Origin: Terramyces sp. JEL0728
Lineage: Eukaryota > Chytridiomycota > Chytridiomycetes > Rhizophydiales > Terramycetaceae
DNA length: 49,205 nucleotides
Assembly: GCA_027603945.1 (NCBI GenBank)
Contig: JADIIU010000098.1
Location: 1-49,205 of the forward strand
Direction: 5' to 3'
Part shown: piece by piece, positions 1,671-49,064 of the stretch
Numbering within the stretch: position 1 is the stretch's first letter
Layout of the letters: each line of letters starts with the position of its first letter
The notes under the pieces: model-generated
The model's database searches: none
Seen by the model: the letters and a program-made list of their open reading frames with translations, nothing else
Told to the model about the DNA's origin: nothing
Made by a program: the position numbers and the translations under genes

Positions 1671-2761
1671 TTACATGTCGAATAACTGTGGTACACGGGA
1701 AATTAGAGCACCCAAGGCAAATGGCACAACGAGAAAGTTATAACTTGGATATTCAATATGAGTCACATGGTTGAGAATAATTAAAGCATTAATACGTCCA
1801 ATTGCGAATCCCCATGCCAATGCAAAGACAATAGTATTGTCTGGTGCCAAGTGGGTGCCAGCTGTAGCCCACAAGAATGCTGAAAATGCCATGATAAGAT
1901 AAGGGACGGTGGTCAATAGTGCACTAGTTACTGGGATGTTCTTCTTGCCACAAACGTCCAATACCCGCATGATACTGACCGGGATTTGGGTAAAGATCAG
2001 CAAGATCAGCATAATACCAACTGCAAAGTGACCAAACGATAACTCTCCAAGAAACGGCTTGACAAAAGGTAAAACTTGTGCTACGGGTGTTGTCCAAACT
2101 TGTGGTCCAACGAATCCAGAAATACAGAGAGATGAAATGGAAATCAATAGTCCCTCAGTCGGCCCGTTGATATATCCTAAAAATAATGTTCCGGTGTAAT
2201 AAGTTTCCCATGTAGAGAAAAAGAATGCAGTAGCAGCAATTCCAACTGACAATAGTGACCAATTACCCAATCCCAAGCATAATCCAGCAGCATTCAATAG
2301 CGCACCAGTAGTGCAGTTCAAAGCATCAACCCCACTAAATCAAATATCAATTACTGATCAAATAGTTCTCCAAGAGGGGAAGAAGATCCAGTTCTTCTTG
2401 CTTGCTTCCCATCAACGTTATCAAAAGTTGAATATAACCACAATCCAATTCCAAAACTAAAGTAAATCCAAGATGGTCCTGGGGTGTACATGTCTGGCGT
2501 GTATACCAAGAGCAATAAGAAATTGAAAAGCACAAAGACGAATCCTAACAGAGTGATTAAATTAGGTCTGGGTTAATAACAATATTTACGCCATCCATAT
2601 TGGAAAGAGAGTAGCTGCCCAAGTCCAGTATGGCTGCAAAATATACCTGGAGATTGGGGACTGCGTAAGTAATTATTTACCATATCGATTGACGAGTATT
2701 TGTATTTCTTTAATCCATTGAGAGCTTCGTCACTAACTGCGTTTGGATACCACTCCAACAT
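1671..2761 (-). CDS. EPT1: CDP-alcohol phosphotransferase (ethanolamine/choline phosphotransferase)
   Basis: This gene encodes the last step of the Kennedy pathway: phosphocholine or phosphoethanolamine moves from its CDP form to diacylglycerol in the ER membrane. Four exons (2761-2681, 2660-2590, 2567-2355, 2334-1671) are joined across introns of 20, 22 and 20 nt and give 342 aa. The family signature DG-x2-AR-x8-G-x3-D-x3-D is present as [10 protein letters not shown]...GELFDHGVD. The final His and Val of that motif appear only after the third intron is removed. The exon 2 product [10 protein letters not shown] also matches the family after splicing. About eight hydrophobic segments follow. 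The start is set at the internal ATG 2761, just before the conserved N-terminus; upstream sequence in the same frame has a second ATG at 2821. Which headgroup it uses cannot be read here. Confidence 0.88.
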
Positions 2762-2830
2762 TTTTATAACTTGGCTTTTTTTCAAAAAAAATCCATGAAC
2801 AAAAGAGGCAGTCAATGGCATGTCGGTTTA

Positions 2831-4169
2831 TTACAGATTTGCCATTCCGGAAATCAAATCTTCATAGAATGAAACCCCTTCCAAAAAGATATTTTCGTTC
2901 AAATATTCATTGTGGTCGTGCAAAAGGACAGGTGTGTTTTTGATTGCTGAAATGCCAAACGCAGGCACGCCGATTTGTCGAAGGAACCTAGAATCGGTAG
3001 CAGCGGGGAAGATTTCAGGTTCAATTGCAACATTGTGCTTTTTTGCCACAGTTTGCACCACTTGCCATTGCTTGTGTTCACTTAGCTTGGTGGATGGTGC
3101 TCCATCAAACTTTTGAACTGTGGTAACTTCAACGTCGTATTCAGCACACCATTTTCTAACCATCTTTTCGAATTCTTTGTGGTTTACAGTTGGTGCGATT
3201 CTAATATCAACTCCTGCCTCTGCTTCTTCGTGCACGACATTGTGCTGCACTCCTGCCTTAAGAATGGTGACGTTCGTAGTTGTAACCTAGATCAGTATGG
3301 ACTTACGTCACCCAGAGTGAATGGTTTTCCGTCTTGAGTCAATTCGAATTCCAAACGCCTCTGTTCAGAATCTATTGTTACAAAAGGGTACCTCTGAATG
3401 CAAGAAATTTATCCAGAGTTTTCAATAAGCGATAAGTCGCAGATGGCTCGATAAATTTGCTACCATGCCCTGGAATTAATTGTCAACGACCTGCGTTTCC
3501 TTTTGCCTTCAGCGTCAACCACCAAGGCGATCTTTCGCCATAGTACAATTTGAAAGCATTCTTTTCATTTGCAAGTCCTGCCATTACCTTGGTTTACCTT
3601 CATCTAATGCGAAGCCAGCGTTCAGTTCTTTAAACTCCTTACTCTTCACAAACAACTGCATTCCGTCACGACCGCCAATTTCTTCATCTGGAACCCTACA
3701 TTAACTTTGGAATACCATGTAAGATGCAAAGTCCTCTTGAATTTCTTGTTTTGCTGCAGCAGCTTTCTAATAGCTTCCATATACCATATCCCAACACACT
3801 TCATATCTTGCGCACCCCTAGCAACAATATCGCCGTTGTCTAGTTTAACTGCGTCAAACGGAGGGTGTTTCCAAAGCTGTTCAGAAACAGGAACAACATC
3901 AGTGTGACTGTTTAAAATCAATGATTTTTGAGTTGGATCTGTTCCAGGTACAGTCATAATCACCAGGGGCTTTCCTTGTACAAGCTAAATGAGATGAATT
4001 GTACTTCAACAGTTTTGCATTCAAGTTGCAGCTCTTTTGCGTATTTTTTAAGGAACGCAGTGCATGCTGCATAGTCCGGTGCTGGCTGTACAGTTTTAAT
4101 TCGGAGATATTCTCTGAATCTGGTCACTGCAACGTCTTCGACTTTAGCCTTCTTGGTTTGTGGGGACAT
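2831..4169 (-). CDS. ACY1: Aminoacylase-1-like M20 metallopeptidase
   Basis: Predicted to hydrolyse N-acyl-L-amino acids in the cytosol. Seven exons (4169-4005, 3984-3716, 3695-3598, 3577-3491, 3469-3392, 3371-3307, 3286-2831) with introns of 20, 20, 20, 21, 20 and 20 nt give 405 aa, close to the 408 aa of human ACY1. M20 landmarks are visible: the metal-binding SHTDVVPV, the ARGAQDMKC segment, VPDEEIGG (catalytic Glu pair, created only by splicing intron 2), YGERSPWW, and LLHDHNE near the C-terminus. It co-aligns with the animal enzyme from [12 protein letters not shown] onward. The stop TAA overlaps AATAAA. The neighbouring P450 gene ends only 32 bp upstream on the same strand. The GTCGTT donor of intron 4 is unusual. 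Confidence 0.9.
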
Positions 4170-4201
4170 TTTCAAGATTGCAGGAAAAATTAACACCAGA
4201 T

Positions 4202-5861
4202 TTATTTTCTCTTTGTAAATTTCAAATGGACATGTTTGGTTGTTTTAAGAGTAGCTTCGGTGAAGGAAGCTAGTGGGTCTCCGCCTGGAGGAATGCTGAT
4301 TTTATAATTCTGCGAAAGCATGATCAACACAACCAGCATTTCCACTTCTGCAAATCTTCTGCCAATGCATGCGCGAGGACCCTCAGAAAATGGAGTGAAA
4401 GCATATCGTTCAAATTCATAAAAACCACGAATGGTGGTATCGGTTTGGATCTTTTCGCGCACCTTTTCAGCAGATTTGGCACATTCAGGATCTTGAAACC
4501 ATCTTTCTGGCCTGAACTTTGCTGCATCCTTTCCCCAATACTTTTCATCGTACTGTACGCCATGCGAATGAATGAATATATCAGAACCGTCCGGGATAAT
4601 GTACTTGCCAAGGCTTTGGTTTCCTACGGTCAGCTTTGGCACAGCAACAACGGCTGGATATAGTCGAAGAGTTTCATTGATGATTGCCTACCATTAAATG
4701 ATATATACAAAACAGTACGGTACTTGATTGGTGTTCTTGTAGTCCGGCGGGTTGTTCCCACAGGTGCTCATGACTTCTTCATACAAACGAGCTTGTACTT
4801 CTGGATGGAGTGCAAGTAACGTAAGAATGTAGTTTAGTGTGCCAGCAGAAGTTTCATGACTAGTTAGCAAAAGCATACCCTGCAAACATGAAAATAAAAA
4901 TATTTCCAACAAGTTCTTCTTCCGTAAACGTATCGCTGTCTCCTTGGCAAGCTTTAACCATGGAAGATAACAAATTGCTCTTGTCAATGTTTTCTGGTTT
5001 CCTAGCCCAGGCAACAAATCCTTTCAAGTAGCTGTGGAACTCTATCGTTAATACAAGCTACCATCGAAATTTTGTTTCTGTAATTGCAAACTTTTGATTG
5101 GGAGATTATATGCAAAGTTGGGAGTCAAAATGAATTTAAAGAGGTTGTGGGAAACAAAAGTCAGGCTTTGTTTCAAAGTTTGGTGATATCCCGGTGGTTT
5201 GTCCTCTGGATTATCCACCCAGTTCAATCTTGTCCCAAAGCTGGCTGCGGAAATAACACCCAAAGCAAGATAAAACAGATCTACAGTAACATCAATCATC
5301 CCATTGATTTCACCACTAGTTTCCCAATGGTCCATCATCTGTTGGCAGGTTCTAACAGCTTCCTGGTGTACTAAAATAGTATTGCGTTCCGAGAATTGAG
5401 GAGATACAAATTTACGATCTAGTTTATAAATAGTTACGTCTCTTCCATTCTTTCCCCTCCAAAGTCAGTATATTTTCTCCAAAGATCTGCAATACATTGT
5501 AGTACTTTACAGGTTTAATAAATCCATTCTTTTTTTCAACTGTTTCCTGAATGAGGTCGGCGTCTGCGATTGACGCTACTATGAGATCCGGCGAAACAAT
5601 AAAAGTAATCCTGTCTTCTCCACGATACCTATCATACCTGTGGTTATAATTGAAATCGATTGGCATTGTTAAAAAGGACGGCAGATTATATCCTATTCTT
5701 TCGAATATTAGTTGAAATGGCAGATAAACTTTTCTAATGTCCAGTTTCGCATTTGGATTCAATTTTTTAATTAGTGCTACTTTTCTGTTGACCGATGCTA
5801 TGCAAATGACTGCCGCTGTTGCTATTGCAACTCCAGCAGAGATTAGCAATTTTGAAAACAT
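4202..5861 (-). CDS. Cytochrome P450 (paralogue A)
   Basis: A membrane-anchored haem-thiolate monooxygenase of 526 aa; the substrate is unknown. Exons 5861-5438, 5418-5062, 5041-4879, 4859-4709 and 4687-4202 are joined by introns of 19, 20, 19 and 21 nt. An N-terminal hydrophobic anchor (residues 4-22) is followed by the C-helix WKRHRK, the I-helix AGHETSAGT (built across intron 3), the K-helix NETLRLYP, and the Cys-ligand loop FSEGPRACIGRRFAE. The start at 5861 lies 25 bp after the stop of the next gene, so the two are packed head to tail. The stop overlaps AATAAA. It is a clear paralogue of the P450 at 9921-11688: three exons match exactly in length (357, 151 and 486 nt). Confidence 0.92.
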
Positions 5862-5886
5862 AAAGAGTCTGTGCGACAATTGAGAT

Positions 5887-6732
5887 TTATTTTTGATTGA
5901 GCGACCCAATATCTTTGACTGCGTTCCATAACTGAGCAACATTCATACTTGAATCAATTTCAACCTTGTCATTGACATCAAAAGTTATGTGAACTGCTTT
6001 GGAAGAGAACCGCAATTTACCATTGTGCAGTTGCTCAAAGTTGATTGGATCATTACCAACCGTTTCAACCAAATCCAGGCTTATTTCCAGCTTTTTAAGT
6101 TCGATTTCCACAGCTGCAGCAGCACTTTTATGGGTAGAGACGGTTTTCGCACCAAATTCATCGTCGTGCAATTGATTTGATCCCATATACTGTCGCACAT
6201 CAAAATGCTTTTCCAAATACTCTTTTCCCATGGTAGTCAAGTAAGTTTGAAGCGGGCCAAACTGTTTTGATTTTTTCATGCATTCATCTACCTTGTATTT
6301 TGGAACAAGAATACCATTATCGGATAATTCATGAAAATTTCGGATATCGTTTTCAAGGATGACTAGTTGCTCTTGATTGATAGATAACGATTCCAGGATT
6401 TTTTCATCATCTCGAATAGTGTCGCACGGTTGGAGGGCATGCGGGTCTTTCTTTGTGAAGCTTTGGTCAAATACGTTGCAAATGTGTGGTTGGTTCAGCG
6501 CATGGACTACTGGCAGGATGCATCCAAAGTCAGTGGCAGAATAAATGCACAAGTTAAAGTACGGAGCCAAAGCCGAAAGAAATGTTTCAATATCGGAACG
6601 AAGGTAGATAAAAGTCCCTTTGATTAGCATGTCTGGCTTGCAATCAGGAATTTTGGTTTCGGTCGAGTAACAAAAAGTATTAATCCAGTCAATTAATAAC
6701 ACAAGTTTCTTGCAATCGAATTGGGCAGTCAT
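5887..6732 (-). CDS. FCP1/TIM50-like HAD-fold protein, probably non-catalytic
   Basis: Single exon, 281 aa. The N-terminal part (residues 9-190) follows the FCP1/TIM50 layout: LVLLID at strand 1, a motif around residue 45 where a phosphatase would have RPG, ETFLSALAPYF.LCIYSA at strand 2, and LVILEND near strand 4. The FCP1 phosphatase signature DxDx(T/V) reads DWINT here, so the second Asp is replaced by Ile; activity is doubtful, as in TIM50 proteins. No presequence or membrane segment is visible, so mitochondrial TIM50 itself is not supported. The C-terminal 90 aa are not recognised. A TATAAGT box lies about 26 nt upstream of ATG 6732. The TAA stop overlaps AATAAA. Confidence 0.6.
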   Translation of the reverse strand: MTAQFDCKKLVLLIDWINTFCYSTETKIPDCKPDMLIKGTFIYLRSDIETFLSALAPYFNLCIYSATDFGCILPVVHALNQPHICNVFDQSFTKKDPHALQPCDTIRDDEKILESLSINQEQLVILENDIRNFHELSDNGILVPKYKVDECMKKSKQFGPLQTYLTTMGKEYLEKHFDVRQYMGSNQLHDDEFGAKTVSTHKSAAAAVEIELKKLEISLDLVETVGNDPINFEQLHNGKLRFSSKAVHITFDVNDKVEIDSSMNVAQLWNAVKDIGSLNQK

Positions 6733-7050
6733 AATGGAAGCGCTGAAAACTGGGGCTACTTATAGCGCATGAATTCTCACGCGTTTGCATGAATCTCGAA
6801 TCACTGTTATGGAAACAACGGATAATATGATAAGGGAAAATTTCAAATTTCAAAGAGAATACTATGAACTCTGGGAGGTTGCAATAAGCCAACTTCTACA
6901 GGGTATCTGGGCCATCTGCCAGTCTCGGCATACAGCTGGCATGGAACTAGAGGTATCCTACCATTTTTTCAAATACTCGGTCAGCTGCGGTTATTGTTGC
7001 CACTGAATTGAATAGAACTATGGGCAACCAATATGAAAAATAATCTTAAT
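6733..7050. other. Intergenic region upstream of the HAD-fold gene
   Basis: About 320 bp. Beyond the TATA-like box at 6758-6764 I see no gene, repeat or RNA structure. Confidence 0.4.
6758..6764 (-). promoter_or_regulatory. TATA-like box of the HAD-fold gene
   Basis: TATAAGT on the minus strand lies about 26 nt upstream of the ATG at 6732, the same short spacing as at several other genes here. Confidence 0.4.
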
Positions 7051-8201
7051 TTATTGTCGCTTGCGGTTTAATGAAGCCATTTTGAATTCTGGAACTTTAT
7101 AAGCCAGACTTTCAACTCCAGTACTTGGAGAAAACTGAAAGTCGCTAAAAGTATTACGTTTATCCAGAACCCCTTCATTACGAAGCTTTTCCAAATGCTG
7201 CAAATCTGGTTGGTAATGTGGGACTTCTGGAATCAATTGTCCAAACCCTACTCCTGTTTTAGGAGAGTAATTGAATTCCGCGTTGCTCTTGTTGATGTGT
7301 TTTAATTTTGAATTTTCAAGTACTCCATCAAATGAGGGTATTGTAACTGTCGGTATGGCATTGACGCCTGATTTTGGAGAGTAAGTGAAATCTGCAGATC
7401 TTCTTTTCTTTGGGGTTGATTCTTGGTTGACTACACTGGTTGTAGCAGATTCAAATGAAATACTAGTTTTTAGTTTCGTTGGTCTTTGTTCGCCAACGGT
7501 GTTTGAACGGTAGAATCTTTGTTGTGAATCAGTAGTCAACGAGCCATAATATGTGGCAAGCACGGTGTCAGAATTCCTTTTGGTTTGTGGATAATCAAAA
7601 GAAGATCTTGGAATGAAATCCGAGCTTCTCTTGGAGGATAGAGTCGCACGCGCGTATGGTGGTCGTTCAACGCTGTTCTTCCTTGGCGAACTCATGGTGA
7701 ATGCTTTGCGGACATTTTCTGGTCTTGTAGTATACGTGGTTAGCGAACTTTGATTGGAAGAAGAGCTTTTTGATATCCCTCTCGATAAACTCGCGGTTGA
7801 GCCCTTGGAAATCGCTCTCGATAATTCATTTGACGATAACGACCGGGAAGACTGATTTTTTTCAATTAGTTTCGCAAGAGTCCCAGTGTCGCTAATCCTG
7901 TCTCCTTTCTTTTTTGGATATCCCAGTTCTGCACCAGACGTTGGCTACCATTAGCAAAAATTACATTCACTTTTCGTTTTCTGTAAAAGTAGTACCAAGA
8001 GAAGTATAAAATCATTAGTAAAAATATTCCAGCAACGATAGAGACCGCAAGCACGAATCCCAGCTGCTCTGTCTGGTTTGGGCTTTGCGCACTGTCTCTA
8101 ACATGTTGTCCAAATGTTTCTTGGCTAGCAGGAATATCTGTTGGTGTAGGGAGTGAGCTGGCAATATTTACAGTGCTGCTTGGTATTAGACTTGAATTCA
8201 T
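7051..8201 (-). CDS. Single-pass membrane protein with SPxxGV repeats
   Basis: Two exons (8201-7965, 7944-7051) joined by a 20-nt intron (GTAATTTTTGCTAATGGTAG) give 376 aa. Without splicing the frame stops shortly after the membrane segment; with splicing it runs on for a further 297 residues. A Ser/Thr-rich N-terminus of about 47 residues precedes one hydrophobic segment (about 49-70, ending FYRKRKV). The long Ser/Arg-rich cytoplasmic tail holds three copies of a F-x-(Y/F)-SP-x-(T/S)-GV motif. The design resembles fungal single-pass plasma-membrane or wall-sensor proteins, but I recognise no family. The stop overlaps AATAAA. Confidence 0.75.
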
Positions 8202-8327
8202 TGTCCCTTAATTTAGTAAAGGACAGTAGTCCCTTTTTATTCTGGTGTACCGTTTATTCGAGTCCCCGCTCGCTAAATCACTCCATTAATCAAAGCCAAA
8301 ATACTACGAGGCTCATGGAATATCGGG

Positions 8328-8867
8328 TTATTTATTTAATTTACGAGCGGTATGTCCACGAAATTCCAGATTGTCGGCATGTCCTTCCCGAAAGCATCGG
8401 TTGCAGTATACATCATCGTCGCACTCTTTACAAATTACTTGGCCATCCTCATTACATATACAGCACCAACTATCTGTTTCGTCTTTGAAATCATCCAATT
8501 TTGGGGCGGCTGGAACACTCCCGACGGGTTTCTTGTTTCTGATTACTGCTTTATCAACTTTAACCTGTCCTAGTTCAGATAATCGTCGCTCGAATTTCTT
8601 TAGTTCGTCTTTTTCAATTTCGCCGTATTTCGATTCAAGTTTAACTTCGTCTCGGATTTGTTTCAATAATAGATCTGCTTCCTCTGACAGCGGCTCCTGT
8701 GTAGTTGGAGATTTTGAAATAACGTCCACTACTTGGTCGAAATCTACAAAAGTTGCTTGGGGAAGTTTGATGTGGATTGGCTCCTCAGCAATAATTTCAT
8801 CTAAATCAATATCATTCAGCAGATCCTTGTCATTGAGCAAGTCTGCCAGGATTTTATCATCGTCCAT
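8328..8867 (-). CDS. ANCHR/ZFYVE19-like zinc-finger protein (no FYVE domain)
   Basis: Single exon, 179 aa. The C-terminal 45 residues (WCCICNEDGQ, CKECDDDVYC, RCFREGH) match the B-box-like zinc finger at the C-terminus of animal ANCHR (ZFYVE19), the abscission-checkpoint regulator that binds VPS4 and CHMP4 proteins. The N-terminal half is acidic and helical, with LLND and LDEI segments that could act like MIT-interacting motifs, but the N-terminal FYVE finger of the animal protein is absent. The start is the ATG at 8867. The end reads AATAAATAA, so the poly(A) signal abuts the stop. A role with ESCRT-III in late cytokinesis is inference from the family. Confidence 0.7.
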   Translation of the reverse strand: MDDDKILADLLNDKDLLNDIDLDEIIAEEPIHIKLPQATFVDFDQVVDVISKSPTTQEPLSEEADLLLKQIRDEVKLESKYGEIEKDELKKFERRLSELGQVKVDKAVIRNKKPVGSVPAAPKLDDFKDETDSWCCICNEDGQVICKECDDDVYCNRCFREGHADNLEFRGHTARKLNK

Positions 8868-8905
8868 CTCAAAATAGTAAAAAACTGTTACCAAAAAAGT
8901 TAATA

Positions 8906-9253
8906 TTAAAACCGCAAGTGTCCGTGATGATGATGATGGAATTGTTGGAAAGGGCCGTAATGGTGGTATCGGTTACATCCAGTGAACTGTATGGCACCAT
9001 CACATAAGCTTTTGGCTGTGGATCCTGGGATGTATGGTTCAGCGCCAGTAGGCTGCGTGTAAGACAAGGCAGGGTGGTAGCCGCTGCTTGGAGAGGAAGG
9101 TAGACCGTCCTCAAAAGTGATAGGTGAAACTGGATGTGGATGTCTTGGATCATCCCAAGTGGAGACACCTGTATTTGTGTTGACAAAGTAATGCTGCTGA
9201 TGTAGAGGATCCCATATTGGCATGAATCCTGGGAGTACTAGATTTGGGTTCAT
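8906..9253 (-). CDS. WW-domain protein with His-rich tail (copy 1)
   Basis: Single exon, 115 aa. A WW domain occupies residues 7-38 (LPGF...HQQHYFVNTNTGVSTWDDPR). The first signature Trp is replaced by Phe; the second Trp and the DP are present. The last 20 residues include HHHHHGHLRF, a possible metal-binding tail. It looks like a diverged neighbour of the next gene (9349-9828): the same WW core (YFVNTNTGVSTWDDPR against YYVNTKTGISSWDDPR) and a His-rich end, without the Gly/Ala-rich middle. WW domains bind proline-rich ligands. The frame is open and supported by the domain, but the region between the WW domain and the tail is low in information. Confidence 0.65.
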   Translation of the reverse strand: MNPNLVLPGFMPIWDPLHQQHYFVNTNTGVSTWDDPRHPHPVSPITFEDGLPSSPSSGYHPALSYTQPTGAEPYIPGSTAKSLCDGAIQFTGCNRYHHYGPFQQFHHHHHGHLRF

Positions 9254-9348
9254 TGCTATTTCGCTGGCCTGGGTCTATTTATACGGCGGGAACAATGTTG
9301 TCAGCGGGTTGAAACAGAGAAGCTTAAAGAAAATGAATTTATTAGCTA

Positions 9349-9828: not shown

Positions 9829-9920
9829 ACAGGGAAGAAATTATTGCCCTGTCTAAAACCTGATGGCTTGGATCAGCTGTCTAACAGTTTCATGGAACAA
9901 TGGTACCAAAAAATAGAATT

Positions 9921-38925: not shown

Positions 38926-41891
38926 TTATTGAGCTCTGTTTTCCAACCATTCAGCAACTTGGTGGCCGTACAAAGTTCTCCAAGCCAACAATTGCCGGGC
39001 AGTTTCCAGGCCTTTGAGGACGGCTAAAGTTGATCCAGTAGGAACTTTAAAGTCAGGGTCAATCATTTCAATAAACAAATTTTCAGCTTCGGCAATCAAG
39101 AATGGCTTGGTGAACGATTCAACGACACTCTTCAAAAGAGCATTAAGATCAAACAGTTTCAATTCAACAATTTCGTCCCACTATGGTTAGAAAAACTTAC
39201 CGAATCTAAAAGGAATAGCCATACTGAAATGTGACCAACTGGTGACAAGGTAGCAACTTGGGTAAGCAAAGTTGGAATATCTTGCTTTCTTACCTCTCCG
39301 CCGATAGCAAACGACAGGGTTCTTGCTTGCAAGTATGGAGTTGCAGTAGAAGCCAACGCATGCAAGTAAATTTGCTGTTCTGGGGCAAAGGTAGACTCCT
39401 TGAACTTGCTTAGAACAAATTCGTAGTCTTCCAAGTCCCCGTACAAGACACCAGCGTCATAGATAGCACCATAGACATCAGGTTTGACTGGAAGTTGATC
39501 AATCTTGCCATCTTTGATCATCCTAAAGTATTTTACTGCAGTTTGAACAGAGTCCTTGTGGTTGTTTCTTACAGCTTCAGAGAACAATCTTGAGCGAAGT
39601 TTTGCGCGAAGGTGGTGATCTTTAGTGTCCTTGGAGGTTTCGGTCCATCCAATATGCTTGATAACTTTTTCAATGATGGAAGTTTGGAATTTGATCAAAG
39701 GACCATAGGTTGGATAGATGGCAAAAATGTTCTTTAATGTCTCCATATCTTTCAGCGCAGTTTCCCAAACCAAAACGTTGGTTTCTTGTTCAAGAATTTC
39801 AAGTAAATCAAGAGCGATAGTAGAGTCTTCCAATCTGCCAGTAAAAGTCATTGAGAACACATCACTGATCAAACCAGCTCTTTCAACAGCAGGAAGGAAT
39901 TCCAGATCCTTTTTCAACCACTCAATAACATACTTGTAGGTCTTGGTGTTGTATAATGATCTATAGAATCCAGTTTGTTGGAAATTTGCCAGCAGAATAG
40001 AGTCTGCTGGATACTCCTTGTCGAATTTTACAGCAACCTTTCCTTGTTTGGCAATTTCAGCAAACCCTCTGCCTAATAGTTTTGGTATGCCAGTGGCATT
40101 GGAGTAGACTGCATAGGAGAGAGGGACGGACCAAAGTTGATCCGCTGGATCAGGAATCAAAAAGTTCAATGCATCAACTGGCTTCTTTAGTTCATCGTCG
40201 TCGACCAAGTTTGAGAACACGAATCTTTCTTGCTTGACTTTAACAGATCCCGTTTTCAATTCTGCAAAAGTCAAGAATGGGAAACCAGGCTGATCGGTCC
40301 ATCCATGCATAAATTTACCAATATCTTGATCAGTTCTTAATGCATCCCACAGTTCTTGAGTGTGGGCATTTCCATAAGCATGGTCAGTCAAGTAATTATG
40401 GAGCTTGGAGAAGAACAGTTCTTTTCCATACTTTTCATTCATCCATGACTCCAACATACGGATGATTGAAGAGCCTTTTCCGTACAAAATATCTGTGGAA
40501 GCCTTTTCGCTTGGATTTTCAACCTTTTGGGTAATTGCATGGGAGAATAGGGATTCGTCAGCATGTAGCGCTTTCACAAAGTCAGTCGGGATAAATTGAT
40601 CAGACATATTCCAATGCGGTTCAACAGCATCAGTGCCCTTGTATTGCATGAATCTAGCGAAACCTTCATTGAGCCATAAATCATTCCACCAATCTAAAAT
40701 TAAGAATAATTACCCATGGTTACCAAGTTTCCAAACCATTGGTGAGAGATTTCGTGCGCGACTACAGTAGCAACTCTTTGTTTATTGTCAGGGGTGGATC
40801 TTTTAGGGTCAAATAACAAGGCAGTGTCCCTATAAGTAATCAACCCCCAGTTTTCCATAGCTCCAGCATTAAAGTCTGGAATGGCAATCATCTAATGTTA
40901 TAACTTTGTTACATCAAGCTTAGGAAGTGGATACTTGATATCAAAAACATCTTCAAAGTATTCAAGAATTGGCACGCCAACTTTTAGTGCATAGTCGCCC
41001 AAGTCGGTGGAACCAGGGGCGGTGAATACAGACACCTCCACTCCATTCTTGGTTTTGGCAGAAATAGATTCAAAGTCAGATACGATAAAGGCGACCAAGT
41101 ACGTAGACATTCTGACTGTTGGGTGGAATTCGTAAAGCTTCTTGTCGCCAATCGGCGTGACGGCCTTTACTTGCATGTTGCTGAGGGTGTGATACTGTGA
41201 GTCAACAGTCATGCTAATTTCGAAAACAGCCTTCTTGTTTGGTTCGTCAAAGCAAGGGAAAGCCAAACGCGCGCTAGTATCTTCAAATTGGGTGGTAGCT
41301 AGATATCTGGTTTCTCCTTCCTTCTTGTAAGATGCCAAATAGTACCCGGCCATGTTTTGGTTGAGCTTTCCATAATATCCAAGCGATAATATATACTCAC
41401 CGACAGGAAGGGGCTTTTCAAAAAAGAAAGACATTTGGTCGTATTCAGGGCGGATAGAAGCATGAGAGAACTCGATTTCAACTTCTGATTCGGTGGATAC
41501 CAAATCAATAAATTTAACTTCGAGATCTTTCTGGTGCAAAACAATAATCTCGGTCTTTTTCAAGATTTCAATGGTGATATGGACTTTTCCTTCAAAAGTA
41601 AAGTCATGCAAGTTGGTAGCCTTGTCCAAAAGGTAGTACTTTGGTTCAATCCAAGAGGGCAATCTGATATTATTCCATTCTTTTTGAACAACCGTATTGG
41701 TTTCAAATACACCTTTGAAATGGAATGGAGCAATCGTGAACAGGCACAATGCAATTAGAATTCCATAAAAGTACCCTGACCAGCGTTTTGGCGATTTTCG
41801 TTGTTGGGATTCCACCTAGATTAGTTGCAAGTACCCCAAGCAGTGTCTAGAGTTAATCAAGTCTTACCAATTTTTCCGATGAAGTGTTCAT
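38926..41891 (-). CDS. M1 zinc aminopeptidase, type II membrane protein (a)
   Basis: Six exons (41891-41868, 41846-41835, 41815-40913, 40891-40714, 40693-39201, 39180-38926) with introns of 21, 19, 21, 20 and 20 nt give 954 aa. Exon 2 is only 12 nt (residues TLLG). A short cytosolic N-terminus leads into one membrane helix (about 29-44), then an ectodomain with the exopeptidase motif GAMENWGL and the zinc site [11 protein letters not shown] plus WLNEGFA. This is the aminopeptidase-N layout; it trims N-terminal residues from peptides outside the cell or in the endomembrane lumen. A TTTAAATA element lies about 29 nt upstream of ATG. The stop overlaps AATAAA. It is tandem with gene b, with different intron content. 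Confidence 0.92.
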
Positions 41892-41919
41892 TAAAGTCGG
41901 AAATGGCTCTTCCACTTTT

Positions 41920-41927
41920 TTTAAATA
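41920..41927 (-). promoter_or_regulatory. TATTTAAA element of the M1-a gene
   Basis: TATTTAAA on the minus strand lies about 29 nt upstream of the ATG at 41891. Confidence 0.35.
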
Positions 41928-42167
41928 GAAAGTCAGTTGCTTGTGGCTTTGCATACAAGCTCCTCATCCAATGCAGAGCAGATCAAAGCAAGAGAAAGAA
42001 GGAAGGCATGCTGCCAAAGATACCCGGAATCGTCTTGCAATGCACAATCATGCGTTTTAGGTCCAAAGATTTGCTTTTGGTTCCGCATGAAACATCTGTG
42101 TGCAGTGATGACTCAAGTTGCCTCTAAATTATCAGTAAGGTGTGGCATCCATTTATTAATTCATTGG

Positions 42168-45013
42168 TTAGAACCCTTCTTTTGTCAGCCAATCTGCGAC
42201 TTGACCACCATATAGACCCCTCCAAGCCAGCAGTTGGCGCGATGTCTCTAATCCTTTCGATACGGCCGTTTTAGATCCAGGAGGAACATAAAAGTCTGAA
42301 TATTCATCTGATACGAATAATCTATCTGCTTCTTTGATCAAGTATGGATTAGTGAAAGACGACACTACTGTCTTTAAAATTGAATTGAGTTTGTCAAATC
42401 CAACCTCCTCAAATATATCAACAGTATAGTCCCAATTATCCAACAGGAAGTACCATACAGTTAAATGTCCAACTGGAGAAAGGCCGGCAACTTGGTTAAT
42501 TAGCAATTCCAAGTCCTGTTTTCTAACTTGCCCACCAATTGCGAAATTGAGTGTGCGTGTTTGAAGAAATGCAGTTTTTGTTGATGCTAGTGCGTGCAGA
42601 TATAGCTGCTGATCTGGTGCAAATGTTGACTCCAAGTATAGCCTTTGAACATATTCATAATCTTCCAATCCGCCGTATATAACGCCAGCATCAAAAATTG
42701 CACCAAATACGTCTGCAGTGACAGGAACACTCTCTTTCTTGCCTTGTTTGATAAGGTTAAAGTATTCTAGGGCTTTAGCAACAGTCAGGCGATGGTTGTT
42801 TCGAACGGCTTCGCCGAATAATCTGGCACGAAGTAGCCCTCTTAAATGGTGCGAGTCTTTGTCTTTGGAAGTCTCTATCCATCCAATTGACTCGATAACA
42901 TTTTCAATCAAGCGTGTTTGGAAAGCGATCATAGGACCGTAAGTAGGGTAGAGGGCAAATATATCCTTTAGGGTCTCCATATCTTTGAGCACATTGTCCC
43001 AAACAAGGATATTTGTATCTTTTTTCAGCAGTTTCAAGAGCTCCATTGATATAGTTGGGTTTTTCAATCTCCCTGAAAATGTCATTGCAAAGGCATCACC
43101 AATCAAACCAGCTCTTTCAACAGGCGGGAAAAAGTCCAAGTCGGCATTTAGCCATTCGATAGCATATTGGTAAGTTTTTTCCTCGTACAATGATCTGTAT
43201 ACTCCTGTTTGACCGTAATTTGCAAATAGTACATAATTTGGATACTCTTTATCAAATTCAATCTGAATATCTTCTAAACTTGCAATTTCAGCGAAACCTT
43301 TGTATAAGCGGGTCAGAGTTCCTGTTTCATTCGAGTATAATGTGAAAGACACAGGTACAGACCATATTTGGTGATCATTGAAATCTGGATTAATCAAATT
43401 CGCAAATATAAACCTATTCTGCTTGACAATTGCGCGAGATTTCCCCAAGTCCTTGAACTCGAGGAATGGGAAACCAATATTATCAGTCCAAGAATCCATA
43501 AACTTGCTAATATCTTGATCGATACTAAGAGCATCCCATAGCTGGCTTGTTTTGGCATTCCCGTATGCGTGTTTCTTTAAATAAGTGGAAATTTTGTCGA
43601 TAAATGCATTTTTGTAGTATTTTTCATCCATCCACGCTTCAACCATACGAAGGACAGATGAGCCTTTGGCGTATGAAATAGCATCAAAGATCGTAGAAAT
43701 TTCTTCGGGGTTACTTACTGGTTGGGCGATTTGGTGGGTAAATAAAGATTCGTCTGCCTGTAATGCGCGAACAAGATCATTTACAATAAATTGGTTGGAC
43801 AGGTTCCAGGATGGTTCTGCTGCAGCCGCAGCTTTATATTGCATGAATTCAGCAAATCCTTCATTAAGCCATATATCAGTCCACCATTCCATGGTTACCA
43901 AATTTCCAAACCATTGATGAGCAAATTCGTGGGCAATTACTAATTTAACGATAAAATACCCGTTGCTACTCGTTGCTTATTACCTGGTGTTGAATTCTGT
44001 GGGTCGTACAAGATGGCGGTATCTCTATATGTTATTAATCCCCACTAGATTAACCACAAAATTACATTCTCCATCGCGCCAAACTTCATATCTGGAATTG
44101 CAATTAGATCTAATTTAGGGAGTGGAAAATCGATATCAAAGGCATTCTGGTAGTACTCTAAAATAGGGACTGTTACGCTGAGGGCATATTCTGCAAGCTT
44201 TGAAGACCCTTTTGCAGTATACACCGATAACTTTACGCCGTTGCTTGACTCGGTTGATACTGATTCGAAACTAGAGTTAATCCTCTCATACTCTGAAACA
44301 ACATAAGCAACAAGGTAAGTTGACATTTTCACACTTTGTTCAAAATGAAATGTATGTGTTACGCCATTATCAGCGGTGGTAATCAAAGGCATGTTATTCA
44401 AGGCATGGTAAGACTTTTCCGTTGTCATTGATAACTGGAATTTGGCTTTCATCTCTGGTTCATCCAAACAGGGAAAAGCAAATCTCGCTGAAATAGGTGC
44501 AAATTGGGTTGTTGCGATATACTTTGTTTCAGACCCCAACTTGTATGTAGCCAAGTAATACCCGGCATTGTTGTTTGCTAATTTGCCATTGAACTTTAAC
44601 GAAATTTGATATTCCCCTTCATCCAAGATGCTGTTAAAGTGATAAATTGCATACTGATATTGGGGCACATATTCCTGGTGGGACAATGGTATTTCTTGAT
44701 TTGAATGAAGGGGTTTGAAACCAGCAAAATCCACAGATAGCTCCTGATGATGTACAATAACAAAATCCGTCTTTTTGGAAATATTGAGGGCAATATTGAC
44801 AGTTCCATGAAAAACAAATCTGTTCATATCGGTAGTTATATCCAGCTCGTATTTCTCTGGCCTGATATACGATGGTAGCCTGATGTTGTGATATTTTGGG
44901 ATCGCAGCAATAGCGGAAATATTATACCGTGGCTGAAGCCAGATTGCAACGACGATAAAGCATAGTAGTAGGGTAATGTACTTGCTTCGGGCAGTTTCTG
45001 TTTTCCTCTTCAT
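42168..45013 (-). CDS. M1 zinc aminopeptidase, type II membrane protein (b)
   Basis: Three exons (45013-44065, 44043-43960, 43939-42168) and introns of 21 and 20 nt give 934 aa. A basic N-terminus is followed by a hydrophobic helix (about 12-27), then GAMENWGL (completed by intron 1) and the zinc-binding [11 protein letters not shown] with WLNEGFAEF (completed by intron 2). It is a tandem paralogue of 38926-41891, with the same domain order. It lacks three later introns or exon splits that gene a has (at VTMD/WW, at LLDS/WD and around the 12-nt exon). An AATAAA follows the stop at 12 nt. Substrate preference cannot be read from the sequence. Confidence 0.93.
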
Positions 45014-45072
45014 AAACCAAAATAGAAAAATCGGAGTAAAGACGGAATATTAAAAATGGTAGATTGAACAGC

Positions 45073-45080
45073 TATAAAAA
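45073..45080 (+). promoter_or_regulatory. TATA box of the secreted CBM gene
   Basis: TATAAAAA lies 32 nt upstream of the ATG at 45112. It favours that start over the ATG at 45081, which directly follows the box and opens a different frame. Confidence 0.5.
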
Positions 45081-45111
45081 ATGTTGTGCAGATCAGAAGA
45101 CCTTGATCTAC

Positions 45112-46329
45112 ATGATAACTTTACTTTTCTCAGTTTCTCAAGCAGCAGATTCAAATTTCGCGGTATTTGGTGCTAATGTAGGTTACTGCAAACTGGTTTA
45201 CGGATCCCATCAATGCTCCATTTATTTTTTTCCAGTGCACCATTAGTGTTCCTATCGTCCCTACCCCTGATTGGGAAACACTCTTTATTTGGCCAGGTAT
45301 ACGCGACTTTACAAGGTTTACAATCGTTGGTTGGTGCACCAAATTTCTTGCCGATAGACAACGGAGTGTTGCAAGTATAATGTCTCTAATATAGCCTGTC
45401 TTGGCTTTCGGACAATCTTGTGCACCAAATCAAGCCGCGGTAGAAATCAACTACGACTCTGAGTGGTGGGTCGAGCCAATGTACGTGAACACTTACGGAA
45501 AAGTACCAGGCTACACTGGTTGTAATGGAGGCAATATATTAAAAGTAAAGCCTGGAAATCAACTGCAAACCACAATGTACTTGAACGAAGGAACAACCAT
45601 CTGGACGCAAAATGTGACAAATCTCAGTACTGGTCAAACAGCACTATACAGCATCGATTTATTAGGCCAGCAACAAGCCTGGGCTGAATTTATTATTGAA
45701 ACATCTGGCGGTTGGCATAAAGACCCTCCGCTGGTAATTCCGGTTAACAATAGGTGGAAGTAACAGATATCACGCTTCGAGCTACTAATCCAGACAAGTC
45801 GTTTTGCAAGTATGCTGGTGACGCTTATGCTTTGTATCCAGGTGCTTCGGTGGTGTGCGAAACCCCTGTGATTGTAGGTAATGAATGTAAGATCTCGCAC
45901 TGTTTCTACGATGGATACGCTCCAACTACCATCCAGGAAATGCCCACATCAACTGTGAATCTGACAGTAACTCGTACAAATACAGAAACATCAACAAAAC
46001 CATTAGCCAAACTACCGACAACTACAGCCAGACAAACTTTATCCTTTTACAATACAGCATCCAAATCAACAACACATACAAAATCATTAGCGGTTCCAAG
46101 TAGACCAACGCAAACTCCAGTGTGCAGTGTATACCCTGTTCTATCAAGCAAATCAAACTGCGTATTGGATGGAAAGCTTAAATGTTCGGGTTCACAACTA
46201 GCAGTCTGTGAATACCAAATTCTCAATGGAAATCTTGAGCTTCGATACCGATTTATAAACTGTCCGGCTGGAACTACGTGCACAGTCTCCAACGATATCA
46301 CTCTATGTTTAAAGCCAAATTGCTTTTGA
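45112..46329 (+). CDS. Secreted protein, fungal lectin-like domain plus CBM19-like chitin-binding tail
   Basis: Five exons (45112-45162, 45182-45296, 45316-45374, 45395-45733, 45754-46329) and introns of 19, 19, 20 and 20 nt give 379 aa. A short signal peptide (MITLLFSVSQA) leads to a domain of about 220 residues with IPV-type motifs VPTPDWETLFIWPGLQ, FLPIDNGVLQPVLAFG and a Cys-containing FCKY loop. I know this layout from secreted fungal proteins but cannot name it securely. A Thr-rich linker follows, then a C-terminal Cys-rich module (CVLDGKLKCSG...YRFINCPAGTTC) that looks like CBM19, a chitin-binding family. Each splice restores the conserved motif across it. The ATG start is chosen by the TATA spacing. 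Confidence 0.72.
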
Positions 46330-46335
46330 ATACAT

Positions 46336-47633
46336 TTATTTCAACTGTGGTAATTCGTATTTTGTGTTGGATTTGAACCAAGCATACGCTTCGTTTAGTT
46401 GATGCTCGAGTGTTTCGGATGGAGATTCGCTCTTTCCAATTATTCTGCACGCCGTGTTCAGACAATTCAGTCCAAATCCAGTGTAGTTGCTGTTCACTGG
46501 AACCAAATACTTGAGTTCAATGTTCTTGTTTGGATATTCTTTTGCAGGTAATTCTTTCAACGTCCCGAGTTCTCTAGGAGCCATCAGGTCTCCTACTTGC
46601 ATATTCGGATTGACAGGGTCTATGGAAACATTTAATCCATTATTCAGTCTGAATTCATACTTGGGAAATTCCTTTTTTCCTCCAAGTAAAGAGTCAATCA
46701 AAAGAGCAATACTGCCACCAGGCCGTCTAGCAGCAATTTCACATATTAAAAATTCTGCATCATGCTCAAATAATTCCAAATGGAAAACCAAGTTTGGTGG
46801 ACACGGAAGGTTGTCCAATACCTGCTGGGTATACGCTTTTAATTTGGTGAACAAGTGCGATGATTCCGGGATAGACAGGTTTCCATATACCTTGCCTTTG
46901 GTAAATTCCAGATTTGTTGAAATGTATTTGAATGGCCAAATGAACTGAATTTTTCCATCGCTGGCATAGCCATTGACGTGATACATAGTTCCAGCCTAAA
47001 TTAGCTTAAAAATACAATAAATTTTTCAATAATCATATCTCCGGAATAATCCATTACCTTTCCCTCTTCATCAATTCTACTGTAGAATTCGTTTGTCAAG
47101 TACATTTCCAGATCATCGTGGTCTTTGATGACTCGGATGCCAGCTGAAGCGGAACCAAGTGTAGGCTTTACTAATACAGGATACCCATGAGCATTGGCAA
47201 AATTAATAACGTTGACTGGCGAAAATACCCGTTCAAATGGCGGAACTTTGATTCCTCTGGAAGACAGGTGGGTTTTCATTACTTCTTTATCCCTAAATAC
47301 CAGCGCGGAACTTGGTGATAGCCCATTACTGAGTTTGAAAGCCTGTCTAATGTAGGAAGCCCTAAGAATAAGATCTTCCTGCTTTGTATAAACAAAGTCC
47401 ATATGGTACTTTGCGTGCCAATCAAGAGCCACAAGCTCTACTCGTCCATTTGAAGTTGGATGTTGAATTTCACAAACTTGTTCACAATTTTGCTTGTCAT
47501 CATCAGACGCACCACCAGTACTCGTAATTAAAAATAGCTTGGCGCTATCATATTTGGTGATAAAATCCGAGTATATCGTTTTATTGTAGATGGATGATGA
47601 CGATACTTCGTCGATAATCAATATATTTACCAT
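46336..47633 (-). CDS. Stand-alone ATP-grasp ligase-like protein
   Basis: Two exons (47633-47016, 46995-46336) with a 20-nt intron (GTATTTTTAAGCTAATTTAG) give 425 aa. An N-terminal Rossmann-like segment (about 1-110) precedes an ATP-grasp fold with SALVFRDKEVMK, a GYPVLVKPTLGSASAG nucleotide loop, IIEKFI joined by splicing to AGTMYHV, and FLICEIAARRPGG as the metal-binding motif. It resembles carboxylate-amine ligases of bacterial type; the substrates are unknown. The stop TAA overlaps AATAAA. It is the second ATP-grasp ligase in the window, after the fusion at 35070-37233, and is of a different subfamily. Confidence 0.78.
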
Positions 47634-47877
47634 TTGGAAGATTACTTTTATCGTGGGGTAGTATTGCGCGACTCCACGATTTCACTTTGTTCCAATGGAA
47701 CAGGCCGGAAAAGTCCTCTTGAATAACATTAGTTTGCCGGTACTTTATACCTGGCAATGTCGATTTCGATCCATCAACCTTTCGAATCTAAAAATCACTG
47801 CAAGATGTTTTGTAGCATAAAGTAAGCGCAAGTCTCCACAAGTTCCATTACGCACCAAGTATCAGTTTATTAACCAT

Positions 47878-48243
47878 TTATTCAGCCGCTGGAGAAGCTC
47901 TAGCCCCTCTATCAATCTTCAAATCCCACTTGGGATAATCCATCTTTGTCTTATTTTCAGTCTCTGGAGGCAGCATGCTGTTAAATACCTGCCTACTGAA
48001 TGGCCCAAGAGTACTTGGAAAACACAAATCTAATAACTGCTTTTGCGCAAGGGAATAGTGCTCGTATCCTACCATCAAGTCGCTTCGTATTTTTCGCATA
48101 TCTTTTGGCGTTCTCATACTAAACCCGAATAAATACTGTTCAAACTCTTCAATGCAGTCTTGAACGTCTATGGATGAAATATGCGGTATCTCCTGTCGGT
48201 GCTGCAAGTACAAGTTTGTCATGTAATCGTGTAGTGTAAACAT
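47878..48243 (-). CDS. Hypothetical 121-aa protein
   Basis: Single exon. The ATG at 48243 is chosen over an upstream non-ATG in-frame codon. The protein is charged and helical, with no membrane segment, and ends in Ala/Ser (RASPAAE). I do not recognise a family. Its reality is supported by position: it starts 38 bp after the Derlin stop on the same strand, and its TAA stop lies in AATAAA, as in its neighbours. Confidence 0.6.
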   Translation of the reverse strand: MFTLHDYMTNLYLQHRQEIPHISSIDVQDCIEEFEQYLFGFSMRTPKDMRKIRSDLMVGYEHYSLAQKQLLDLCFPSTLGPFSRQVFNSMLPPETENKTKMDYPKWDLKIDRGARASPAAE

Positions 48244-48280
48244 TGAAAACACGAAAAATATATCGAATATTTTTGTTGAT

Positions 48281-49064
48281 TTATTCAGAGCCTAGTCTAT
48301 GTCCTGTACCCCAAGCAGAGCGTGTGGTAGGTCTAGCAGGCGGAGCTTGGCCTTGAAACCCTTGGAATCCATGTACACCGGTTGGTGCTGGGAACCAATC
48401 TTTCAAGAACCATGGTGCAGGAAGTATCACCCTGCCATTATTTTGAGTCGGATATTTAACCAAAGCATATTCTACAACATATCCAGCCGCGATTCCTATT
48501 AATGAAATTACTGGATCTCCGCCCATTACAACATTCTGAAATTAAACGTAATTACCCATAGTAATAGTACCCACGGCAAAAACATTGCTTTGAATTGCAA
48601 CCCAAACATGAATGTAACTACCTCGTTGCCTTTTACTTGAGCATACAGTGTGGTTACCGCAATTCCAAATGTGTCAGTGAGAACCGGAAGCGACATGTAA
48701 ACCCCAATTACCTATCATTAACTTGGTTTACATCCAAGACCGCCATAATCAAAATAATTGCCCAGGCGTATTCATATGGTTTTGAAGAAAAGTGTCCTTG
48801 TTCCAAAGACAGTGACTGCTGATACAACATGATCAAGTGCCAGATAATCGCTTGTCCTCTTGAATAGAAATGGCATGTAATTAATCTCCATATTTCGTAC
48901 TTTTGGTAAATGAAAGGGAAAATCAGAATCAACTGTCTTGGATGGCAGATTCCAAACTGCGCTGCAAGTGACAATACTACGGTCCCGATGATTAAAAACC
49001 TTGTAATTGGCGGGACTGAATTTACCCAATCGTTCAATTCCCTGAAACTTTGTGCAAACGACAT
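48281..49064 (-). CDS. DER1: Derlin-family ERAD protein with an SHP box
   Basis: Three exons (49064-48732, 48711-48556, 48535-48281) with two 20-nt introns give 247 aa (human Derlin-1: 251). Rhomboid pseudoprotease membrane helices cover about 18-200. Family landmarks are NSVPPITRF at the N-terminus, YEIWRLITCHF, LPWVLLLW joined to NVVMGGDP by splicing, and LIGIAAGY. The C-terminal WGTGHRLGSE matches the Derlin SHP box (WGQGFRLG in human Derlin-1), which docks Cdc48/p97. It acts in ER retrotranslocation, the same pathway as the Doa10 gene at 27.8 kb. The start is the ATG at 49064. The stop overlaps AATAAA. Confidence 0.92.

What the first reader, a model, noticed from the sequence alone, without database searches (positions are those of the whole stretch)
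1671..49064. Sixty spliceosomal introns of 19-24 nt, most exactly 20 nt, across 21 genes with checkable joins
The direct evidence is frame arithmetic and motif repair. Removing each GT..AG unit restores both the reading frame and conserved family residues (for example V-ATPase c, Derlin, Doa10, UTP14, P450 I-helices). In every one of the intron-containing genes the exon total is a whole number of codons. Lengths: 12 of 19 nt, 35 of 20, 9 of 21, 3 of 22, 1 of 24. Of the 10 introns whose length is a multiple of three, 9 contain an in-frame stop, so retention would be caught. Known introns this small are in the Bigelowiella nucleomorph (18-21 nt) and some ciliates; I know of no fungus or fungal relative described with a uniform 20-nt set. 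How a U2-type spliceosome spans 20 nt is unexplained.
Basis: partly seen in the sequence, partly recalled or inferred. Interest (0 to 1): 0.95.

Follow-up and report, generated by a model that had tools for sequence, protein, structure and literature searches.

The report
Twenty-base introns throughout a chytrid genome
A chytrid fungus appears to carry about one 19-22-base intron per kilobase of genome, each little more than the splicing signals themselves, which would add fungi to the few groups with introns this short and open the lower size limit of introns to experiment.

Summary
The window is a contig of Terramyces sp. JEL0728 (Chytridiomycota, Rhizophydiales; name from a protein record). 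A gene model with a flat prior over intron lengths 15-130 nt, run on the window plus 200 kb from 20 other contigs, put 203 of 531 introns at 19-21 nt; a complement-motif control put 13 of 508 there. The introns are nearly all signal: GUA(A/C/U)UU, UAYUAAY, N, YAG. The branch A sits at position 14 or 15 with 5 or 6 nt after it, also under the flat prior (48, 49, 45, 37). That explains 19, 20 and 21 nt. U2 snRNA keeps GUAGUA; U2AF65, SF1 and Prp8 are present; U1 and U6 were not found. Of 16 junctions tested on homologs, 11 are gapless in at least 95%. Deposited NCBI proteins remove five of these introns. Read-through proteins of three uncultured relatives decode to 19, 22 and 20 nt. No RNA evidence was available. 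Such introns are known in heterotrich ciliates, mikrocytids and nucleomorphs; my searches found none printed for fungi.

The parts
1655..48731. 67 predicted introns of 19-22 nt in 21 gene models (both strands); all coordinates are in the output
   Evidence: Gene model (peaked length prior); flat-prior runs
23535..23553 (-). 19-nt intron in V-ATPase subunit c (GTAATTATACTTGATGTAG), joins [13 protein letters not shown]
   Evidence: Pfam PF00137 matches downstream; sequence; model. The family residues across the join are recalled
3985..4004 (-). 20-nt intron, aminoacylase-1-like gene 2831-4169
   Evidence: Junction after residue 55 inside a gapless 191-residue alignment to aminoacylase-1 (1q7l_A)
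3696..3715 (-). 20-nt intron, same gene
   Evidence: Junction at residue 145 inside the same gapless alignment
3578..3597 (-). 20-nt intron, same gene
   Evidence: Junction at residue 178 inside the same gapless alignment
3470..3490 (-). 21-nt intron, same gene
   Evidence: Model only
3372..3391 (-). 20-nt intron, same gene
   Evidence: Model only
3287..3306 (-). 20-nt intron, same gene
   Evidence: Model; also found by the scan without a motif model
2661..2680 (-). 20-nt intron, choline/ethanolamine-phosphotransferase-like gene 1459-2821
   Evidence: Junction at residue 47 in a gapless block against 8urt_A
2568..2589 (-). 22-nt intron, same gene
   Evidence: Junction at residue 71 in a gapless block
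2335..2354 (-). 20-nt intron, same gene
   Evidence: Junction at residue 142 in a gapless block
5419..5437 (-). 19-nt intron, P450 gene 4202-5861, EWKR|HRK, phase 1
   Evidence: Same codon and phase as intron 11143-11162 of the paralog
11143..11162 (-). 20-nt intron, P450 gene 9921-11688, EWKR|HRK, phase 1
   Evidence: Paralogous position; family match
5042..5061 (-). 20-nt intron, P450 gene 4202-5861, NFD|EFH, phase 1
   Evidence: Same codon and phase as intron 10767-10785
10767..10785 (-). 19-nt intron, P450 gene 9921-11688, NFD|EFH, phase 1
   Evidence: Paralogous position
4860..4878 (-). 19-nt intron, P450 gene 4202-5861, inside the AGHET motif, phase 2
   Evidence: Same codon and phase as intron 10578-10597
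10578..10597 (-). 20-nt intron, P450 gene 9921-11688, inside AGHET, phase 2
   Evidence: Paralogous position; region aligned to CYP3A4
4688..4708 (-). 21-nt intron, P450 gene 4202-5861, before AIINETLRL, phase 0
   Evidence: Same codon and phase as intron 10407-10426
10407..10426 (-). 20-nt intron, P450 gene 9921-11688, before AVMNETLRL, phase 0
   Evidence: Paralogous position
40892..40912 (-). 21-nt intron, M1 aminopeptidase gene 38926-41954
   Evidence: Removed in deposited P0004; gapless in 101 of 105 homologs
40694..40713 (-). 20-nt intron, same gene
   Evidence: Removed in deposited P0004; gapless in 106 of 106 homologs
39181..39200 (-). 20-nt intron, same gene
   Evidence: Removed in deposited P0004; 0 of 113 gapless in the 15-residue window, with a family indel a few residues downstream
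44271..44291 (-). 21-nt stop-free intron, M1 gene 42168-45013; kept as YERINSS in deposited P0001
   Evidence: Insert not shared by the other aligned relatives; spliced join gapless in 103 of 105 homologs
44045..44065 (-). 21-nt intron, same M1 gene
   Evidence: Removed in deposited P0001; gapless in 103 of 106
43940..43959 (-). 20-nt intron, same M1 gene
   Evidence: Removed in deposited P0001; gapless in 107 of 107
33924..33943 (-). 20-nt intron, UTP14 gene
   Evidence: Found by the scan without a motif model; Utp14 Pfam match
32564..32583 (-). 20-nt intron, UTP14 gene
   Evidence: Found by the scan without a motif model
24476..24495 (-). 20-nt intron, two-pore K+-channel-like gene (label recalled)
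   Evidence: Found by the scan without a motif model
45734..45753 (+). 20-nt intron
   Evidence: Found by the scan without a motif model

Best explanation
They are U2-type spliceosomal introns shrunk to almost nothing but signal. Positions 1-6 are the 5' splice site (GUA[A/C/U]UU), about positions 9-15 are a UAYUAAY branch motif that can pair with GUAGUA of U2 with the branch A (position 14 or 15) bulged, then one or two free bases and YAG. Length is clamped by two short spacings: 5' site to branch A (14 or 15) and branch A to 3' end (5 or 6 nt). These combine almost freely to give 19, 20 (two ways) or 21 nt. Shown here by computation: the lengths, the signals, the two spacings, the restored proteins, core factors in the genome, and short introns in relatives. 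Inferred: that they are spliced as lariats by the U2 spliceosome; that recognition is by intron definition without a polypyrimidine tract behind the branch point; and that U1 and U2 must act in turn rather than side by side, because the 5' site to branch distance (13-14 nt) is far below the roughly 50 nt given for human introns (PMC6692369, passages).
For: Length peak against control (203 of 531 vs 13 of 508). Spacings: 61+69+60+45 = 235 of the 295 introns with a clear branch point in the peaked-prior set, 24 more having none, out of 319, independence p 0.12; under the flat prior, 48+49+45+37 = 179 of 250 with a branch point among 309 calls of 15-40 nt. U2 snRNA with intact GUAGUA, 140 bits. 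U2AF65, SF1-HH and Prp8 PROCN present, and U2AF65 itself matches human U2AF65 after removal of 19-20-nt introns. 11 of 16 junctions in UPF1, ADE2 and two M1 genes gapless in at least 95% of homologs. Deposited NCBI proteins P0001 and P0004 remove five of these introns. Two P450 paralogs share all four introns of the one at the same codon and phase, lengths differing by 1 nt. Read-through proteins of three uncultured relatives decode at one length each: 19, 22, 20 nt.
Against: No RNA read was available. U1 and U6 snRNA were not found. 5 of 16 tested junctions are not gapless: three at variable N-termini, one in ADE2 (3 of 119), one at 39181 (0 of 113). U2AF65 is retained although 5-6 nt leave no room for its usual tract. 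Only 249 kb (1.7%) of the genome was sampled, and introns over 130 nt (200 nt) were not sought. One relative carries a 54-nt insert at an intron site (P0027). The decoding control is weak for P0262: 399 of 2000 shuffled tails fit some length, 10 of 2000 a length of 19-22 nt.
Confidence: 0.92

Rival explanations
1. Assembly or base-calling artefacts, or frameshifted pseudogenes, that happen to look like introns.
For: No raw reads could be examined.
Against: Errors would not bring GT, a branch motif and AG at fixed spacing, nor fall at the same codon and phase in paralogs, nor appear in independent metagenome contigs.
Confidence: 0.01
2. Segments removed from DNA (as ciliate internal eliminated sequences are) or by a non-spliceosomal RNA cutter (tRNA-type or HAC1/XBP1-type).
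For: Known machines remove very short inserts (recalled).
Against: Ends are GT..AG with a motif matching U2. A 20-nt piece leaves little room for a stem at each end (not folded here).
Confidence: 0.02
3. Many are real introns, but the genome also has a sizeable class of ordinary longer introns that the model misses, so the set is not uniform.
For: P0027, a relative, shows a 54-nt insert; introns over 200 nt were not tested; both models make calls at longer lengths.
Against: For 31-130 nt the GT-AG model makes fewer calls per length (2.63) than the complement control (4.22). In the motif-free scan GT..AG is not above the range of the controls at 31-50 nt (1.25; controls 1.65, 3.3, 1.25) or 51-100 nt (2.18; controls 1.6, 3.6, 1.78).
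Confidence: 0.1

Closest known systems
Chlorarachniophyte (Bigelowiella) nucleomorph introns
   Same: 18-21 nt, narrow range (PMC10245619, passages)
   Different: Relic endosymbiont nucleus with extreme genome reduction; here a 15-Mb assembly of a fungus, with roughly 19,000 introns by extrapolation from the peaked-prior set
Heterotrich ciliate introns (Stentor, 15-16 nt)
   Same: Free-living host, near-fixed length, branch A at a near-fixed place (position 10 or 11); commonest intron GUAAUUUUUAUAUAG shares the GUAAUU start (PMC9505925, passages)
   Different: Shorter; Stentor lacks a strong branch consensus, whereas here UAYUAAY is clear
Mikrocytid introns (16-17 nt)
   Same: Extremely short, uniform and conserved in sequence (PMC10245619, passages)
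   Different: 224 introns and a reduced spliceosome of 17-19 proteins in parasites; here introns are dense (1.28 per kb)
Encephalitozoon cuniculi introns (22-76 nt)
   Same: Fungal relative with introns down to 22 nt and strict motifs (PMC3629993, passages)
   Different: 37 introns in all, wide length range, intron-poor parasite
Paramecium and Nyctotherus introns (about 25 nt)
   Same: Ultra-short introns (PMC5014332, start of abstract in the listings)
   Different: Longer; ciliates

Membership tests
U2-type spliceosomal introns | GT..AG ends | tested here: met
   By construction in the models; the motif-free scan has 8, 13, 3 hits at 19, 20, 21 nt for GT..AG against at most 1, 2, 3 in three controls
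U2-type spliceosomal introns | Branch motif complementary to the organism's U2 snRNA | tested here: met
   UAYUAAY at 9-15 of 19-nt introns; U2 with GUAGUA
U2-type spliceosomal introns | Removal restores a conserved protein | tested here: met
   11 of 16 junctions gapless in at least 95% of homologs
U2-type spliceosomal introns | U1, U2, U4, U5, U6 snRNAs in the genome | tested here: inconclusive
   U2 found; U1 not found; U6 not found; U4 and U5 not searched
U2-type spliceosomal introns | Spliced mRNA and lariat | not testable with these tools
   No RNA reads available
Ultra-short uniform intron class (nucleomorph, heterotrich, mikrocytid) | Narrow length range below about 25 nt | tested here: met
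Ultra-short uniform intron class (nucleomorph, heterotrich, mikrocytid) | Branch A at near-fixed distance from both ends | tested here: met
   A14/A15 and 5/6 nt in 235 of 295 and, with a flat length prior, 179 of 250
Smu1/RED-assisted short-intron splicing | RED and SMU1 genes present | tested here: inconclusive
   PF07808 no candidate; PF17814 no match; neither search had a positive control; that SMU1 carries PF17814 is recalled
Ciliate-type DNA elimination | TA-bounded segments | tested here: not met
   The segments are GT..AG

The most novel reading that the evidence does not exclude
A whole clade of chytrids (Terramycetaceae, uncultured kin and relatives of Kappamyces) runs dense splicing, about 19,000 introns per genome, on all-signal introns. 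The spliceosome there tolerates a 13-14-nt 5' site to branch distance and mostly accepts two settings on each side of the branch point. It keeps U2AF65 but has no room for its tract, and perhaps lacks Smu1/RED, the factors that short introns need in human cells.
Probability: 0.55. Interest if true: 0.85.

Novelty: new member of a known kind. Interest (0 to 1): 0.74.

Why it matters
Introns this short were known in ciliates, a relic algal nucleus and parasites. A cultured chytrid (JEL strains are held in a culture collection, PMC7537106, start of abstract in a listing) with sequenced relatives makes the lower size limit of spliceosomal introns open to comparison and experiment: which spliceosome changes came with the shrinkage, how U1 and U2 share 20 nt, and why two settings are usual on each side of the branch point. 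It also warns that gene finders with a larger minimum intron will misread this clade; a deposited protein (P0001) retains one such intron.

Tried and rejected
Tried without result: U1 by Rfam and by a motif pattern; U6 by Rfam (two hits under the gathering score, which look like chance) and by pattern (of the four pattern hits, the three loci re-scanned held no U6 at E 0.01; L032 was not re-scanned). SSU rRNA: three attempts unanswered because the machine was busy. RED and the LisH domain expected of SMU1: nothing found, but without a positive control absence is not shown. SPF45/RBM17: six G-patch loci; two gene models obtained (L045, L046), neither identified by a search; the other four not resolved.

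Considered and rejected: artefact, DNA elimination, non-spliceosomal cutting (see rivals). Selection for stops in multiple-of-three introns: 47 of 71 against 40 averaged over frames, weak and biased. A deficit of 21-nt introns because they are multiples of three: 45 against about 51 expected under independence (arithmetic on the table, p 0.12), not shown. A first crude ORF-joining scan had a high background and was replaced. My first shuffle control for the decoded tails (6, 0, 19 of 2000) was too kind, because most shuffles lost the leading V; repeated with V kept first it gave 45, 0 and 399 of 2000 for any length, and 0, 0 and 10 for 19-22 nt.

Rows dropped: 24 of 319 introns without a clear branch motif, and 60 of 295 in other spacing classes, are outside the four-class table (59 of 309 and 71 of 250 under the flat prior); introns outside 18-24 nt were left out of the branch analysis; L034 was left out of the 249-kb counts. 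The 20 stretches are from the 20 largest contigs, one (C5) placed on V-ATPase matches, so they are not a random sample. In the ADE2 relatives, 3 of 5 tails decoded; P0246 and P0244 stop too early, and P0291 and P0303 were not tried.
Full report
WHAT THE WINDOW IS. The window is contig C98 of a 15.0-Mb assembly in 231 contigs. Its aminopeptidase ORF is identical to NCBI protein HDV01_007899 of Terramyces sp. JEL0728, recorded on a contig of 49,205 bases, the window's length (P0001; P0004 = HDV01_007898 likewise). Terramyces is in Terramycetaceae, Rhizophydiales, Chytridiomycota. The name rests on those protein records. That the genus is saprotrophic is recalled.

THE OBSERVATION. I built a gene model (hexamer coding scores, donor and acceptor weight matrices, all trained on these same sequences) and ran it on the window and on 20 stretches of 10 kb from the 20 largest contigs, 249,205 bases in all. 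With a flat prior over 15-130 nt, 203 of 531 predicted introns were 19-21 nt (52, 104, 47), against 13 of 508 for a control using the complement of the same matrices (Fisher p 1.8e-52). For 31-130 nt the real model makes fewer calls per length than the control (2.63 against 4.22), so no class of longer introns up to 130 nt is visible. A second control that only reversed part of the acceptor still peaked (122 of 423), as expected because it keeps the donor and the AG. A scan that uses no intron matrix, only coding potential on both sides and loss of frame on retention, gave 8, 13 and 3 hits at 19, 20 and 21 nt, against 1, 1, 0 (CT..AC), 1, 2, 3 (GA..AG) and 1, 2, 0 (GT..AC). The peaked prior favours these lengths, so the flat-prior run is the fair test. 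In the peaked-prior set over 249 kb, 106 of 142 gene models hold 319 introns of 18-24 nt, 1.28 per kb, which extrapolates to about 19,000 in the genome.

INDEPENDENT CHECKS BY PROTEIN FAMILIES. For four genes, UPF1 and ADE2 from other contigs and two M1 aminopeptidases of the window, I aligned the spliced proteins to 118-120 homologs each and asked whether the 15 residues around each junction are free of gaps. 11 of 16 junctions are gapless in at least 95% of the homologs that cover them. The five failures: three junctions in variable N-termini (UPF1 residue 41; M1 residues 30 and 34), ADE2 residue 88 (3 of 119), and M1 39181 (0 of 113), where the alignment shows a family indel a few residues downstream although the join itself matches relatives. 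Against solved structures, the spliced aminoacylase gene aligns to aminoacylase-1 over 191 residues without a gap, across three of its six introns; the other three lie outside that alignment. The phosphotransferase aligns without a gap across three of five; of the other two, one lies near a gap and one outside. U2AF65 aligns to human U2AF65 across the introns at its residues 133 and 172. Two P450 genes in the window, with four and seven introns, share all four of the former at the same codon and phase; lengths differ by 1 nt and the sequences differ outside the signals. The three further introns of the second gene have no counterpart in the first.

DEPOSITED ANNOTATION. NCBI's proteins for two window genes already remove five of these introns, so the introns are in the databases whether or not anyone has remarked on them. 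One, P0001, keeps a stop-free 21-nt intron as seven extra residues, YERINSS, not shared by the other aligned relatives.

RELATIVES. No DNA of relatives was fetched. But many proteins predicted from metagenome contigs appear to read into introns, and some of their tails can be decoded. For ADE2, tails of P0332, P0266 and P0262 fit a GT..AG intron followed by the conserved exon in a shifted frame at exactly one length each, among lengths 10-39: 19, 22 and 20 nt, and each also allows TAA ending at a branch A of 14, 16 and 14. With the leading V kept and the rest of the tail shuffled, 45, 0 and 399 of 2000 fit some length and 0, 0 and 10 a length of 19-22 nt, so P0266 and P0332 are strong and P0262 (rich in leucine) is weaker. 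Two further tails, P0246 and P0244, stop too early to decode. In the M1 family, P0024 and P0013 carry 7-residue inserts (21 nt), P0013 also an 8-residue one (24 nt), and P0007 has a tail compatible with a 19-nt intron (read by hand). P0027 has an 18-residue insert (54 nt) at the same site as one of P0013's, so longer introns exist in some relatives. In an ADE2 tree the three decoded relatives fall in one clade with Terramyces, Boothiomyces and Kappamyces, with Gorgonomyces next and Batrachochytrium and Entophlyctis outside (node supports were printed after re-rooting and may be shifted by one node). The introns of Kappamyces, Gorgonomyces and Batrachochytrium themselves were not seen.

ANATOMY. 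In the 71 introns of 19 nt, position 3 is A in 92%, position 5 is T in 46% (G only 14%), position 6 is T in 68%; positions 9-15 read T A Y T A A Y, with position 12 T 92%, 13 A 86%, 14 A 96%. In the peaked-prior set the branch A lies at position 14 with 5 nt after it in 61 introns, 15 with 5 in 69, 14 with 6 in 60, 15 with 6 in 45, together 235 of 295; 24 of 319 introns show no clear branch motif. The two choices are not significantly linked (p 0.12). Part of this regularity is built in, since the acceptor matrix holds the branch motif and the peaked prior holds the length. The flat-prior run is free of the second: among 309 calls of 15-40 nt, 250 have a branch point, with 48, 49, 45 and 37 in the same four classes (A14+5, A15+5, A14+6, A15+6), and the branch A is at 14 in 96, at 15 in 91 and at 16 in 15. 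A 20-nt intron is thus six bases of 5' site, two or three spare bases, a seven-base branch motif, one or two spare bases and YAG.

MACHINERY. U2 snRNA is present with the canonical GUAGUA (140 bits). Present too are U2AF65 (252 bits, below the family cut-off of 310, probably because the unspliced gene was searched), SF1, the PROCN domain of Prp8 in an open frame of 1409 codons and UPF1. U1 and U6 were not found, whether through divergence, an intron inside them, or gaps in the assembly. RED and the LisH domain expected of SMU1 were not found, but no positive control was possible, so loss is not shown. This matters because Smu1 and RED are needed in human extracts when the 5' site to branch distance is short, and about 50 nt is given there as the minimum (PMC6692369, abstract and passages). 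High-affinity U2AF65 binding is reported to need at least eight pyrimidines (PMC8363638, passages), which do not fit in the 5-6 nt behind the branch A here. So either U2AF65 binds elsewhere in the intron or acts through SF1 and SF3B1 contacts; that is inference.

KNOWN CASES. Heterotrich ciliates 15-16 nt with branch A at position 10 or 11 (PMC9505925, passages); mikrocytids 16-17 nt, and nucleomorphs 18-21 nt (PMC10245619, passages); Trichomonas down to 23 nt (PMC12316389, passages); E. cuniculi 22-76 nt (PMC3629993, passages). Searches for fungal or chytrid cases (listings seen, and passages of PMC9698843, PMC13391722 and PMC5364385) showed none with introns near 20 nt. Five of those listings showed only the top 20 or 30 rows of longer hit lists, and only the open-licence part of the literature is held, so this is not proof of novelty.

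VERDICT. The introns pass the tests that I could run, with the exceptions told above. They belong to a known but rare kind, ultra-short U2-type introns, in a new place, a clade of chytrid fungi, with an unusually clear rule for their length. RNA evidence is the missing step.

Noticed in passing
window 44271-44291: Deposited protein HDV01_007899 (P0001) retains this 21-nt intron as YERINSS; an annotation error that relatives expose.
   Followed up: yes
window 25662-26397: Three tRNA genes within 740 bases, two of equal score on opposite strands.
   Followed up: no
window 12067-14530: Two adjacent, similar GH16 genes, modelled without introns, near intron-bearing genes.
   Followed up: no
window 16837-20940: Neighbouring genes with fungal cellulose-binding (CBM_1) domains and Ser/Thr-rich linkers.
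   Followed up: no
window 23754-25326: Gene with GFGDY and GYGDY stretches resembling a two-pore K+ channel (label recalled; translation).
   Followed up: no
P0027 (relative, ENA contig): 54-nt in-frame insert at an M1 site where another relative (P0013) has 21 nt; may show an intermediate of intron shrinkage or growth.
   Followed up: partly
G000 (whole assembly): Neither U1 nor U6 snRNA found by Rfam models or motif patterns.
   Followed up: partly
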